Shown here: positions 5,175 to 51,329 of the stretch, in pieces | Layout of the letters: each line of letters begins with the position of its first letter | How positions within the stretch are numbered: position 1 is the stretch's first letter | Source: a virus | Direction: 5' to 3' (one strand) | Length of the DNA stretch: 58,297 nt | Virus record (IMG/VR): IMGVR_UViG_3300024255_002562 | Location: 1 to 58,297 of that record | The notes under the pieces: generated by a model | Database searches by the model: none | Seen by the model: the letters and a program-made list of their open reading frames with translations, nothing else | What the model was told of the DNA's origin: nothing | Translations under genes and position numbers: made by a program

Positions 5175-5889
5175 TGATATATTTTCCTTTCAATGATTTG
5201 AGTTTTGCTCCCATAGCAGATAGTCCATTTATTTTTAAGACATTAGCCATTTTGTCAAACGCTGTTTTTTCTTTCAGAACGGATTGCCTAAGTGTATTGT
5301 CTATCGTCTTTTTGTTTTTTATAGAATCCTCTATTTCGGCATGAAACTGCTCTCTATTTTTGAAAACAATAGGAGTTCCTCCAGCAGCTATAATATCTAG
5401 CTCCCTAAAACCTAAATCTTTTTCAGGGACAAGGGATACTCTCGATTTGTTATAGGCGTTAAAAATATCAAACTTACTTATGGTTCCGCAGTAACTAAAA
5501 AACGGAAGAGGCTTTTCATAGAATAATTTAAAATTGTAGTCTTCATTAAAGTATCTATACAACTCTATGCCAAAATCATCCGGAGAACCAATGTAACTAA
5601 TGTCAGAAGTGAACGATTCGTCGTCAGTTATAAATTCGCTCAAGTACGAAGTGAATGGACCTATTTTTTTATAAACATCGTCGTCAATTTGTATTTCAGC
5701 AAAACTGTCTTCGTTACTTTTTATTTTAGAATTGATGTCATGAATTAATATATCTGGAGCAAACCTCACAATATCTTCTTTGCTCACTGTTCCTTCTATA
5801 AGACCTAATTCAATATCTAGTGATGACAAACATTTGGTTAATGACAAAAACCTAAAATCTTTATTGTTATTGTAAACTAAAATTTTCAT
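5167..5889 (-). CDS. probable glycosyltransferase, GT-B type (weak)
   Basis: 240 residues. The C-terminal half (NAYNKSRVSLVPEKDLGFRE, then LDIIAAGGTPIVFKNREQF) resembles the C-terminal Rossmann domain of GT-B glycosyltransferases of the CgeB/GT4 kind, where a serine-tyrosine/arginine strand is followed by an E-hinge-AAGGTPI motif. The N-terminal domain (ILVYNNNKDFRFLSL) is compatible with that. It overlaps neighbours by 4 and 8 nt. Confidence 0.55.
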   Translation of the reverse strand: MKILVYNNNKDFRFLSLTKCLSSLDIELGLIEGTVSKEDIVRFAPDILIHDINSKIKSNEDSFAEIQIDDDVYKKIGPFTSYLSEFITDDESFTSDISYIGSPDDFGIELYRYFNEDYNFKLFYEKPLPFFSYCGTISKFDIFNAYNKSRVSLVPEKDLGFRELDIIAAGGTPIVFKNREQFHAEIEDSIKNKKTIDNTLRQSVLKEKTAFDKMANVLKINGLSAMGAKLKSLKGKYIND

Positions 5890-26086: not shown

Positions 26087-27203
26087 TAGATATCTCCAAT
26101 ATGTTTTTTAATAAAAATTCCGCACTTTGGTATCCTTGGTGAGTCGCAAGTATTTTTTCGTTTTCAATATCGCAAATCATAAAACTAGGAAGTGATAAAA
26201 TATTATACTTTTTAAGTATGTCGTTGTTAGTATCAGCATCTATTTCAGTTATCTTTACGCCACTATCTGTTAGTGTTTTTCTCTCTATATTGTTCCAACT
26301 AATGCATGGAGTACACCAATCCGCCGTAAACTTAATAATGTAGTATTTTTTATATATCTCGTTTAACGAACGGGTGTTGTTTTGAAAAAAAAAGTTATTG
26401 CCAATTTGAGTTGTTTGTAAATTTGGAATATCATGATATACAGAAACAATACGACCTATGCCATCGAAGTTGATGGACTTTAGTAGGTCCGGATATAGAT
26501 AGACATAAGCTGCGGTAATCCCTCTTGCACTAAAATCAAACTTAGTAGCGTCAACTTCAATAATCTCAATCCTACTATCCAGTCCAGCACGACGAATATT
26601 TGAGCGAGCTTCGTTCGCTTTAATTGGGTCAATTTCAATCCCAATAGCTGACTTAACGCCGTAACGCTTAACGGCTTCAATAAGGACATTTCCATCCCCA
26701 CATCCAATATCTGCAAATATATCGTTTTGACCTAACTTTAATTGAGCTAAGGCTTTGTCTCTTTCTTCTACTGGGGAAGAAGCTTGCGGATTAGGGCTTT
26801 GATTTTCGAGAATTTTTTTTTGATATTGAACGTAACACATTCCACAACTGGGGTTTGAGCAAATTGGTTTTTTACCCCATCCAGTTCCGGCGATTGGAAC
26901 TAAAACAGTTTTTACTGGAGCAGAACCAGTTCCTGCGGAGCAGTTACAATTATCGCCACACTGACAACGAGTTAAGTTTCCATCCCCACCATTATCAACG
27001 TACTTTGATCCATTACACTTACATTCAGAAACAACCTCTTTTTCTTTTTCCTGCTTTATATCAGAATTAACGATATGAGCAACATAACCTTCAGCCGCTA
27101 AAATGTCAGTTGACCTAACATTTTTCTCAGCTTCGACTTTCGGTAACTGTATAAATAACAGTAGAAATATAGCGACAAACATTAAAGAATAATAATCTTT
27201 CAT
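26073..27203 (-). CDS. membrane-anchored methyltransferase-thioredoxin fusion
   Basis: 376 residues with four parts. Residues 3-25 are a hydrophobic signal/anchor (SLMFVAIFLLLFIQLP). Residues about 60-135 are cysteine-rich (SECKCNGSKY, RCQCGDNCNCSAG, CSNPSCGMCYV). Residues about 150-250 are a class I SAM methyltransferase: FADIGCGDGNVLIEAVKRYG and AIGIEIDPIKANEARS. The C-terminal 100 residues are thioredoxin-like with active site KFTADWCTPCISW and the cis-proline loop LSLPSFMI. The stop overlaps the next gene by 14 nt. Substrate unknown; the anchor suggests the membrane or periplasm. Confidence 0.85.
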   Translation of the reverse strand: MKDYYSLMFVAIFLLLFIQLPKVEAEKNVRSTDILAAEGYVAHIVNSDIKQEKEKEVVSECKCNGSKYVDNGGDGNLTRCQCGDNCNCSAGTGSAPVKTVLVPIAGTGWGKKPICSNPSCGMCYVQYQKKILENQSPNPQASSPVEERDKALAQLKLGQNDIFADIGCGDGNVLIEAVKRYGVKSAIGIEIDPIKANEARSNIRRAGLDSRIEIIEVDATKFDFSARGITAAYVYLYPDLLKSINFDGIGRIVSVYHDIPNLQTTQIGNNFFFQNNTRSLNEIYKKYYIIKFTADWCTPCISWNNIERKTLTDSGVKITEIDADTNNDILKKYNILSLPSFMICDIENEKILATHQGYQSAEFLLKNILEISNGLE

Positions 27204-49177: not shown

Positions 49178-50827
49178 TTATACTTCAACAAGTCGAAGAA
49201 GCTCTTGATCCATAGCTGCATTGAACAAGTCAGCAGCAGTCTCTACTTTTCCAGACATAATAAATTTCACGTTAGATGCTGAATATCCTGAAAGGTAGAA
49301 TACATTTTTAACATCACCATATGTTTCAAACTTAGTCTCACTTCGTGAACCATAGAATGAGTTAGGAATATTCCATAAAACAATCTTAAAGTTATTAATA
49401 TAATCTTCTGAAAAACCTGCTGATCTTAATTTACTTCTAGCGGATTCAACATTTGTCTTTCCAAGTTCGCTTGCATCAAATTCACCATCACTGATGCATA
49501 AAATGCCTTCTGGAAAATCTGACTCGCTAACTGTTTTCTTAAGGTTACAAAACAGATCAATAACACTTTGGAAGTTCGTTCCGCCATAAGCGTTTCCTAG
49601 ATCGTTAGTCCACTTTTGAGAAGGAGTTGATCCTTTCCATTTTACCATTTTGGCATTATCGTTAAATTCAATATAGTAATCCTTAAAATCACCATCAAGG
49701 AATTCATTGAAGTACAAGGCAATTGATTTTGCAATATCGTCTGAACTAAATTTAGTTCCAGTAGCTGTAGATTCCATTGATCCGGAAGTATCGCGAACTA
49801 CGATAAACTTTGAAACAACACCTTCTTTAGCTTTTGCTATTAACTCATAGAATTGCTTGTCAACAGTTTTAACAAAGTTACTTTCTCTGTTATTTCTTAG
49901 CTCACATAAACACTCATGAGCAAAGCCAGTGTACTTTACAGTCTCCTGTTTGTCAACCCATTCTGAGTATCTTTCTGACAGTCCTTGGTTTTTAAGGAAC
50001 TTACTTTTAACCAATAGATTTAAAGCACGACCATGAATTTTTCCAAAATCAATTCTGTCAAAACTTGACTGAGAGATTAGTTTTTGCCATTCATGTGCTG
50101 TTCCGCTTGCTTTTAACTTACGATATTTTCTATAACTTCCTGCGTCATTTTTTTTGCCAAAAAGATTTGAACAAATCCATTTCGCAATGATACAGTTAGC
50201 TTCCGCTTCAACAGTCTTAAGTTGTGTCTTAGAGCGGATTTGCGGCAAATACTTCTTCATTAAGTTAGATGTTTTATCATCAGACAGTAAAGAAAGAAGC
50301 AGATTAGAAAACCTTCCCCAATTTAATACCTTACCATCCCATCCGTGATAGACAAGATCATAACGCAACATAACAATCAAGTCCTTACAAGAACCGGCGG
50401 AGATAAACAGACCAATATTTTTCCAAAACAAATTTGGAGCAGTATTGTGTAGCCAAATCATCCGCATTGTTGATTCGTGCTTTAGTTCAGCACCAGATTG
50501 TACCGCTTCAGTCTTAATGCCCATACCAACGATATCAGTCTTACGACTAATCATTCTCATATAGATGGTAAACTTAACAAATGACTCCGGGTCTTCTGCG
50601 TACAGAATGCTACAGTCCTTTGCAATATCTGAATAACTACGAGGAGCTTTATACTCTCCGAGCTTTCCAAACTGATCAACAAATTCGTTGCCAGTCGTTT
50701 TGAATTTTTTAGCATTGTTGCCACTGACAGTTTCTGCGGACTTCTTAGATGCAGCACTGATAAAAGAGTTACCTTCTAGTGGTGCGTAAGTTTTAGTTCC
50801 GAGTGTTTTTTTCTTTGTTGTGAACAT
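49178..50827 (-). CDS. Ro60-type TROVE-vWA RNA-binding protein
   Basis: 549 residues. The TROVE ring region fills residues 60-330 (VDQFGKLGEYKAPRSYSDIA; SFVKFTIYMRMISRKTDIVG). The vWA domain at about 340-540 has the MIDAS motif FIVVRDTSGSMESTATGTKF and AYGGTNFQSVIDLFCNL with FPEGILCISDGEFDASELG. Bacterial Ro60 (Rsr) binds Y RNAs and misfolded RNA ends and works with PNPase and RNA-repair enzymes. Here the gene is flanked on both sides by tRNA-like RNAs, the expected neighbourhood. Start ATG 50827 follows GGAAAGCAC. Confidence 0.88.
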   Translation of the reverse strand: MFTTKKKTLGTKTYAPLEGNSFISAASKKSAETVSGNNAKKFKTTGNEFVDQFGKLGEYKAPRSYSDIAKDCSILYAEDPESFVKFTIYMRMISRKTDIVGMGIKTEAVQSGAELKHESTMRMIWLHNTAPNLFWKNIGLFISAGSCKDLIVMLRYDLVYHGWDGKVLNWGRFSNLLLSLLSDDKTSNLMKKYLPQIRSKTQLKTVEAEANCIIAKWICSNLFGKKNDAGSYRKYRKLKASGTAHEWQKLISQSSFDRIDFGKIHGRALNLLVKSKFLKNQGLSERYSEWVDKQETVKYTGFAHECLCELRNNRESNFVKTVDKQFYELIAKAKEGVVSKFIVVRDTSGSMESTATGTKFSSDDIAKSIALYFNEFLDGDFKDYYIEFNDNAKMVKWKGSTPSQKWTNDLGNAYGGTNFQSVIDLFCNLKKTVSESDFPEGILCISDGEFDASELGKTNVESARSKLRSAGFSEDYINNFKIVLWNIPNSFYGSRSETKFETYGDVKNVFYLSGYSASNVKFIMSGKVETAADLFNAAMDQELLRLVEV

Positions 50828-50917: not shown

Positions 50918-50935
50918 TATGCGGATTTCGTTTTA

Positions 50936-51012
50936 CGTTGCTCTACCAGTTGAGCTACTTTGGTCTAGGACCAAAGATCAGATTCGAACTGATAACCTAC
51001 GGCTTAGAAGGC
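50936..51012 (-). tRNA. circularly permuted tRNA-Arg(UCU): 3' part encoded before 5' part
   Basis: Reading the minus strand, the T-half comes first: bases 30-73 (51012-50969), GCCTTCTAAGCCGT, T-stem ATCAG/CTGAT, 3' acceptor CTTTGGT (50976-50970). A 5-nt loop CCTAG (50969-50965) leads into the 5' half: ACCAAAG TA GCTC AACTGGTA GAGC A ACG (50964-50936). Joining 29 to 30 gives a perfect tRNA: anticodon stem ACGGC/GCCGT, loop CTTCTAA (UCU). The outer flanks GGATTTC (51036-51030) and GAAATCC (50929-50923) pair around the break. Confidence 0.85.
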
Positions 51013-51029
51013 TAATTAACTTGCTGTTT

Positions 51030-51036
51030 GAAATCC
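51030..51036 (-). repeat. helix-CAGCAA element 2, outer helix of permuted tRNA
   Basis: Minus strand GGATTTC (51036-51030) is followed by AAA and CAGCAA (51026-51021), then GTTAATTA and the tRNA 3' half. The partner strand GAAATCC is at 50929-50923, beyond the 5' half. The helix brings the two broken ends together. Confidence 0.55.
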
Positions 51037-51063
51037 TTTAACTTATTCGCGAAGCGAAAAAAC

Positions 51064-51130
51064 AAGTCTCTATACTAAAAGTTTGATATCAACAGTTTCA
51101 TTTTTATGTATAATTTGCTGTAAGAGACTT
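51064..51130 (-). repeat. helix-CAGCAA element 3
   Basis: Minus strand AAGTCTCT (51130-51123), then TACAGCAA (CAGCAA at 51120-51115), closed by AGAGACTT (51071-51064) 45 nt later. Eight perfect pairs. It lies between the Arg2-like gene and the permuted tRNA-Arg and is preceded by the GAGC-GTAA-GCTC hairpin and GCATA. Confidence 0.5.
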
Positions 51131-51219: not shown

Positions 51220-51329
51220 TGAGTACCAACCCTACTGCGTTGTTATCTTATTATATCTTACTTGCTACCGCAAGTCAATCTCTTTTTTGAATACTTTCTC
51301 AAGTTTTTGCATCCCGATTGCGGGATGAG

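What the first reader, a model, noticed from the sequence alone, without database searches (positions are those of the whole stretch)
50936..51036. Circularly permuted tRNA-Arg(UCU) with break between bases 29 and 30
The minus strand carries the tRNA's bases 30-73 first, a 5-nt loop, then bases 1-29. Rejoining gives perfect acceptor (ACCAAAG/CTTTGGT), D, anticodon (ACGGC/GCCGT) and T stems with a standard CTTCTAA loop. Permuted tRNAs are established in some algae and archaea, where a splicing endonuclease repairs them; bacteria and phages are not expected to have one. Flanking GGATTTC and GAAATCC pair, holding the broken ends together. It could be used as a two-piece tRNA, ligated, or self-processed.
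Basis: partly seen in the sequence, partly recalled or inferred. Interest (0 to 1): 0.93.

Follow-up and report, generated by a model that had tools for sequence, protein, structure and literature searches.

The report
Phage Y RNA carrying permuted tRNA mimic
The 'broken' tRNA is real, but it is not a tRNA in need of repair: it is the tRNA-mimic half of a small noncoding RNA next to a phage gene for a Ro60-fold protein, one of a widespread family of such RNAs that often stand in tandem arrays and closely resemble an RNA class so far reported only from social amoebae.

Summary
In detail: on the minus strand, 51036-50922, T arm, capped acceptor stem and D arm follow in permuted order inside a GGATTTC/GAAATCC stem. 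It is best read as a YrlA-like Y RNA, not a tRNA gene. Rfam YrlA matches exactly this order (37 bits, E=1.3e-6; below the 69-bit cut-off). The next gene encodes a DUF7788/DUF2828-type protein with a confident Ro60 fold (VIA Z 22.5 over 423 residues). In close relatives the acceptor is sealed by a 2-14 nt cap and the anticodon changes (UCU, UUC, none); no BHB motif is seen, and an ordinary tRNA-Arg(UCU) lies nearby. The wider result: the RNA is one of four units around this gene with the layout AAG-stem-ACAGCAA...stem-G. Such units, up to about nine in tandem, flank Ro60-like genes across phages and bacteria (full signature 115 sense versus 0 antisense in 80 cellular loci). The plain units match the Dictyostelium Class I RNA model near its threshold (39.3 of 41.5 bits), a class reported only from dictyostelids. 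Ro-protein binding and function are inferred, not shown. Verdict: new variant of a known kind.

The parts
50922..51036 (-). Unit b: YrlA-like Y RNA with the permuted tRNA module (the finding)
   Evidence: Rfam YrlA 37.1 bits over 51001-50934; pairings; same order in 11 other units
51030..51036 (-). 5' strand of the terminal stem (GGATTTC)
   Evidence: pairs with 50929-50923; 7 bp
50923..50929 (-). 3' strand of the terminal stem (GAAATCC), followed by the conserved G at 50922
   Evidence: G follows the 3' strand in 106/116 phage and 170/183 cellular stems
51021..51027 (-). ACAGCAA motif, fixed 10 nt from the start of the stem
50999..51012 (-). anticodon-arm 3' part: GC CTTCTAA GCCGT (tRNA 30-43)
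   Evidence: sequence; 27-29/41-43 pairing; loop not conserved in relatives
50977..50993 (-). T arm ATCAG(TTCGAAT)CTGAT
   Evidence: 5/5 bp; covariation in 12 sequences
50958..50976 (-). acceptor stem as a closed hairpin, CTTTGGT-CCTAG-ACCAAAG
   Evidence: 7/7 bp; different stems keep pairing in relatives
50940..50955 (-). D arm GCTC(AACTGGTA)GAGC
51063..51130 (-). Unit a: sister RNA, AAGTCTCT...ACAGCAA...AGAGACTT-G
   Evidence: Rfam Class I RNA hit E=0.004; same unit in L001
50860..50917 (-). Unit c: sister RNA, AGATTAC...CAGCAA...GTAATCT-G, in the 5' leader of the Ro60-like gene
   Evidence: same unit in L001
48956..49074 (-). Unit d: sister RNA downstream of the gene
   Evidence: Class I RNA hit E=0.012
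49178..50827 (-). Ro60-like protein gene, 549 aa, DUF7788 (vWA), PHROG 850 'RNA-binding protein'
   Evidence: AlphaFold pLDDT 87.4; Ro60 fold
51250..51278 (-). promoter-like TTGACT-17-TATAAT upstream of the RNA cluster
   Evidence: 11 of 12 matches; a consensus match only

Best explanation
The feature is a Y RNA of a phage Ro60-like ribonucleoprotein. The terminal stem with the ACAGCAA motif is the probable binding site of the Ro60-fold protein encoded 95 bases further on. The permuted tRNA is a tRNA-mimic domain carried in the loop, as in bacterial YrlA RNAs. Because the acceptor is sealed by a cap and the 'break' is where the Y RNA stem enters, the RNA works as transcribed and needs no splicing. 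The most likely job is that of a tether and gate: the stem holds the RNA on the Ro-like ring, and the tRNA-like end recruits or occupies a tRNA-binding partner such as a nuclease, a modifying enzyme or an anticodon nuclease. The three sister units are tRNA-less versions. Shown here: anatomy, conservation, genomic linkage, protein fold. Inferred: expression, binding, function (the exact function holds about 0.4 of my belief).
For: Rfam YrlA match in exactly this order. Permuted modules with covarying T and D arms, and acceptor hairpins of different sequence that still pair, in units next to homologous genes of seven other phages or viral contigs. The neighbour's fold: ranks 1-10 are all Ro60/TROVE structures, Z 22.5 to 13.9, including Ro60 of Thermus phage phiLo and D. 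radiodurans Rsr; the next rows, vWA domains only, are at 10.6. Linkage: in 12 held-out phage regions ACAGCAA near the gene is 26 sense to 0 antisense, with stems in 21/26 versus 16/53 elsewhere, p=2e-5. In 80 cellular loci near the gene CAGCAA with a stem is 185 sense to 9 antisense, and the full signature 115 to 0. Register: stems start at -10 far more often than at other offsets.
Against: The YrlA score is below Rfam's gathering cut-off (37 versus 69), and the outer part of that model does not match. No RNA sequencing or binding data exist for this virus. Units in some phages lie about 9-10 kb from the gene, inside tRNA clusters. Some units carry non-permuted tRNA-like parts (L007:914, L050:5936), so the permutation itself may not be essential.
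Confidence: 0.86

Rival explanations
1. A genuine permuted tRNA-Arg gene whose transcript is cut and ligated to a working tRNA.
For: Complete set of tRNA arms; UCU anticodon with U33 and A37; the order 3' half, intervening sequence, 5' half is that of known permuted genes (PMC3978253).
Against: Anticodon not kept in L001 or L002. No BHB motif: the break is an asymmetric 17/6-nt internal loop. Plain tRNA-Arg(UCU) at 52043-51970. Same permuted module in units of many phages, always under the ACAGCAA stem.
Confidence: 0.04
2. A decoy: the tRNA mimic titrates host anticodon nucleases or tRNA-targeting defences, with the Ro-like protein as stabiliser.
For: Phage setting; neighbouring tRNA genes; RtcB and RNA ligases near the homologue in Listeria phages; a competitive-inhibitor role of YrlA was proposed in PMC7790460.
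Against: Anticodon loop not conserved; most units carry no tRNA part; the same RNA family flanks the gene in many cellular genomes.
Confidence: 0.25
3. A cis-acting leader that lets the Ro-like protein regulate its own mRNA.
For: Units a-c lie in the leader of the gene; unit c ends 33 nt before the ATG.
Against: In many relatives the units lie after the gene or in distant tRNA clusters; units abut like separately processed RNAs.
Confidence: 0.1
4. A dead tRNA fragment or chance rearrangement.
For: Scores below cut-offs.
Against: Covariation and synteny over 45-74% protein identity; 0 of 100 resampled windows.
Confidence: 0.02

Closest known systems
YrlA bacterial Y RNA (Rfam RF02553; Chen et al. 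2014, known to me by citation)
   Same: T arm, capped acceptor hairpin and D arm in the same permuted order; closing CG/CG helix; gene next to a Ro60-fold protein; mycobacteriophages known to have them.
   Different: The Rfam consensus has an outer and an inner stem with AAUGC and ACUUGU around them; here there is one terminal stem with ACAGCAA at a fixed distance and G after the 3' strand. Score is under the cut-off. Several sister units without tRNA part, often in arrays.
Dictyostelid Class I RNA (Rfam RF01414; PMC7919456)
   Same: Start AAG, short covarying end stem, 11-nt motif ending in UUACAGCAA directly after it, CUG(U) at the 3' end, about 60 nt, variable loop, many copies.
   Different: Eukaryotic, own promoter element, reported partner is the RRM protein Rnp1A; stem register shifted by about one base; phage units score 19-39 bits, under the 41.5 cut-off; reported absent outside dictyostelids.
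Ro60 / Rsr / TROVE proteins
   Same: Whole-chain fold: helical ring plus vWA domain.
   Different: 10-13% identity; Pfam assigns DUF7788 (and DUF2828 in relatives), not TROVE.
Circularly permuted tRNA genes of algae and archaea (PMC3978253)
   Same: 3' half before 5' half with a short sequence between the acceptor ends.
   Different: No BHB motif, break inside the anticodon stem, variable or missing anticodon, standard tRNA present.

Membership tests
YrlA (RF02553) | tRNA-like domain with T arm, acceptor-like hairpin, D arm in this order | tested here: met
   model positions 23-87 aligned, E=1.3e-6
YrlA (RF02553) | score above the curated cut-off including the outer stems | tested here: not met
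   37.1 versus 69 bits; positions 1-22 and 88-114 unmatched
YrlA (RF02553) | encoded beside a Ro60 orthologue | tested here: met
   Ro60-fold protein 95 bases downstream; orthology itself not resolved
YrlA (RF02553) | bound by the Ro protein, tRNA-type modifications | not testable with these tools
   needs biochemistry
Ro60/TROVE protein | helical ring plus vWA fold | tested here: met
   Z 22.5, 423 residues, rmsd 4.1 to 1yvp_A
Ro60/TROVE protein | sequence match to Pfam TROVE | tested here: not met
   no TROVE hit in 10 members at E<=1; DUF7788 in all, DUF2828 in 8, vWA_Ro60 in one at 0.0014
Circularly permuted tRNA gene | BHB motif at the junction | tested here: not met
   17/6-nt internal loop at the break; definition from PMC3978253
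Circularly permuted tRNA gene | mature aminoacylated tRNA | not testable with these tools
   needs RNA from infected cells
Dictyostelid Class I RNA (RF01414) | end stem plus ACAGCAA-type motif and CUG end in the plain sister units | tested here: met
Dictyostelid Class I RNA (RF01414) | score above the curated cut-off | tested here: not met
   best 39.3 versus 41.5 (Leptolyngbya phage, E=2.8e-7); window units 19.7-27.4

The most novel reading that the evidence does not exclude
DUF2828/DUF7788 Ro60-fold proteins and ACAGCAA stem RNAs form one RNP system spread over phages, bacteria and perhaps an archaeon, with tandem RNA arrays of which the permuted tRNA mimic is one interchangeable module, and the Class I RNAs of social amoebae are its eukaryotic branch, so that a Ro60-like protein should be their missing partner.
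Probability: 0.33. Interest if true: 0.86.

Novelty: new variant of a known kind. Interest (0 to 1): 0.63.

Why it matters
It turns an apparent impossibility (a permuted tRNA in a phage) into a member of an abundant and largely unannotated family of small RNAs that flank Ro60-fold genes in well-studied phages such as Felix O1, P100 and mycobacteriophages, and in gut bacteria. It gives a testable RNA-binding signature (AAG-stem-ACAGCAA...stem-G) for proteins now called DUF2828 or 'RNA-binding protein', and a concrete hypothesis for the unexplained Class I RNAs of Dictyostelium.

Tried and rejected
Permuted tRNA gene with splicing: rejected on BHB, anticodon and relatives. Identifying the three highly transcribed regions of Listeria phage CKA15 (PMC12282133) with this RNA family: the one region whose coordinates I could map (26,236-26,727) corresponds to L011:1031-1522 and not to the ACAGCAA array, so I do not use it as expression evidence. 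The first AlphaFold run with three sequences was useless (pLDDT 40.5). The first parse of acceptor stems misread the window and L002 and was redone. MAFFT plus RNAalifold on whole units recovered only T and D arms because loop lengths differ; the end stems were counted in fixed register instead. In the stem scans the stem itself is a search criterion, so pair counts there are partly circular; the tests I rely on are those that did not require it (strand bias, position, register, the G after the 3' strand). The Dictyostelium link could not be tested further: no eukaryotic genomes are held. Literature: only open-licence papers could be searched; Chen et al. 2014 and the 2020 review of bacterial Ro60 were not readable, so earlier description of part of this family cannot be excluded. 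No held paper links DUF2828 to phages or to these RNAs.

Full report
What is there. The minus strand at 51036-50922 reads GGATTTC-AAACAGCAA-GTTAATTA-GC CTTCTAA GCCGT-AGGTT-ATCAG TTCGAAT CTGAT-CTTTGGT-CCTAG-ACCAAAG-TA-GCTC AACTGGTA GAGC-A-ACG-TAAAAC-GAAATCC-G. The T, acceptor and D stems pair completely, and the two outer strands pair over 7 bp. A T arm followed by a capped acceptor and a D arm occurs once in the window and never in 100 Markov-resampled windows.

What it is. Against all Rfam families the best match is YrlA, the 'Y RNA-like' family, over 51001-50934 with E=1.3e-6; the model's own order is T arm, capped hairpin, D arm. The score, 37 bits, is below the family's cut-off of 69, because the model's outer stems do not match. 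The gene 95 bases further on (50827-49178) is DUF7788 in Pfam and PHROG 850 'RNA-binding protein'; a homologue in Ochrobactrum phage is annotated as Ro sixty-related by HHpred. A 21-sequence AlphaFold model (pLDDT 87.4, pTM 0.87) matches Ro60/TROVE structures as its first six Foldseek hits and as ranks 1-10 by VIA-align, Z 22.5 over 423 residues for 1yvp_A; the unrelated vWA-only rows start at Z 10.6. The list includes Ro60 of Thermus phage phiLo. A Y RNA beside a Ro60-like gene is the expected arrangement: PMC12282133 and PMC7790460, citing Chen et al. 2014, state that bacterial Y RNAs are tRNA mimics and occur in mycobacteriophages. The mycobacteriophage MiniMac homologue indeed has a YrlA match just behind its 'Ro-like' gene, again under an ACAGCAA stem.

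Why not a tRNA precursor. In L001 (74% protein identity) the loop at the anticodon position reads ATTTCAC (UUC), and in L002 (66%) there is no such loop. The cap joining the acceptor strands is 5, 14 and 2 nt in these three. No bulge-helix-bulge is present, which defines known permuted tRNA genes (PMC3978253). An ordinary tRNA-Arg(UCU) lies at 52043-51970.

The wider family. The outer part, a 7-10 bp stem, then ACAGCAA exactly 10 nt from the stem start, then a variable loop, then the 3' strand followed by G, is found four times around this gene: 51130-51063, 51036-50922, 50917-50860 and 49074-48956. L001 has the same four. I noticed this in 13 phage loci and then tested it on loci not used to find it. 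In 12 further phage regions of about 20-31 kb, ACAGCAA within 1.5 kb of the Ro60-like gene occurs 26 times on the sense strand and never on the antisense strand; 21 of the 26 have a stem of 7 bp or more, against 16 of 53 elsewhere (p=2e-5). Felix O1 has four units, Listeria phages three, Staphylococcus phage two, Campylobacter phage one. In 26 IMG/VR loci the units often form tandem arrays directly behind the gene, about nine in L050, six in L049 and L055, separated only by a few bases. In 80 cellular loci (mostly Clostridia, also Treponema, Synergistes, a Richelia MAG and a Lokiarchaeota MAG) CAGCAA near the gene is 260 sense to 58 antisense, with a stem 185 to 9, with the full signature 115 to 0. 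The stem starts at -10 in 116 phage and 182 cellular cases against 17-48 at control offsets upstream (-16 to -11), and the next base after the 3' strand is G in 106/116 and 170/183, although this was not required. The 266 units in fixed register have 126 different stem strands.

The permuted tRNA as a module. Twelve units carry the permuted module; T and D arms show compensatory changes and the acceptor hairpins differ in sequence but pair. Other units carry only a T arm (Leptolyngbya phage), a non-permuted tRNA-like fold (L007:914, L050:5936) or no tRNA part at all. The tRNA mimic is thus an optional insert in the loop of a common carrier RNA.

Link to Dictyostelium Class I RNA. The plain units hit Rfam RF01414: E=2.8e-7 and 39.3 bits (cut-off 41.5) in the Leptolyngbya phage, and 10 of the 11 best hits over 13 viral records lie at units next to the Ro60-like gene; further hits of 32-37 bits fall on array units. 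PMC7919456 describes Class I RNAs as starting AAG, ending CUGU, with a short covarying stem, an 11-nt motif next to it, about 60 nt, and reports none outside dictyostelids. The resemblance in layout is detailed; common descent is not shown, as the motif is short and no eukaryotic genome could be searched.

Mechanism. Most likely the Ro-like ring binds the stem and ACAGCAA, and the tRNA mimic recruits or blocks a tRNA-binding partner, in analogy to the Deinococcus Rsr-Y RNA-PNPase particle (described in PMC12282133 and PMC7790460). The binding step and the partner are inference. A strong promoter-like site lies upstream of the cluster at 51278-51250, a consensus match only. The virus probably infects a cyanobacterium: nearest named relative is a Leptolyngbya phage (48% identity) and the window carries a permuted tmRNA match.

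Noticed in passing
window 54272-54077 (-): Permuted (two-piece type) tmRNA match, Rfam RF04321 85 bits, ARAGORN tag ANRNVALAA, overlapping or adjoining a tRNA-Phe at 54030-53957: a phage-borne permuted tmRNA.
   Followed up: no
window 51220-51150 (-): tRNA-like sequence called tRNA-Arg(tct) by ARAGORN, with truncated D loop and poor acceptor, just under Rfam's cut-off; upstream of the Y RNA cluster.
   Followed up: partly
L007:914 region and L050:5936-6040: Units of the same family whose loop holds a non-permuted tRNA-like fold (52.6 bits in L050).
   Followed up: partly
L011:1031-1522 (Listeria phage P100; CKA15 26,236-26,727): The most heavily transcribed region of phage CKA15 (PMC12282133) is a roughly 490-nt noncoding stretch upstream of the ACAGCAA array, with no assigned RNA family.
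   Followed up: no
L079:1422 and 1614: Units beside a Ro60-like gene on a contig binned as Lokiarchaeota; could be an archaeal or viral contig or misbinned.
   Followed up: no
L048:435-585: Hatchet ribozyme match (75 bits) on a viral contig near the Ro60-like gene.
   Followed up: no
L070:5540-5755 and 5191-5547: Group I intron next to a weak tmRNA match behind the RNA array: possibly an intron-bearing tmRNA.
   Followed up: no
L044 (Listeria phage LP-083-2): RtcB-type tRNA ligase and an RNA ligase within about 5 kb of the Ro60-like gene, suggesting an RNA repair neighbourhood.
   Followed up: no
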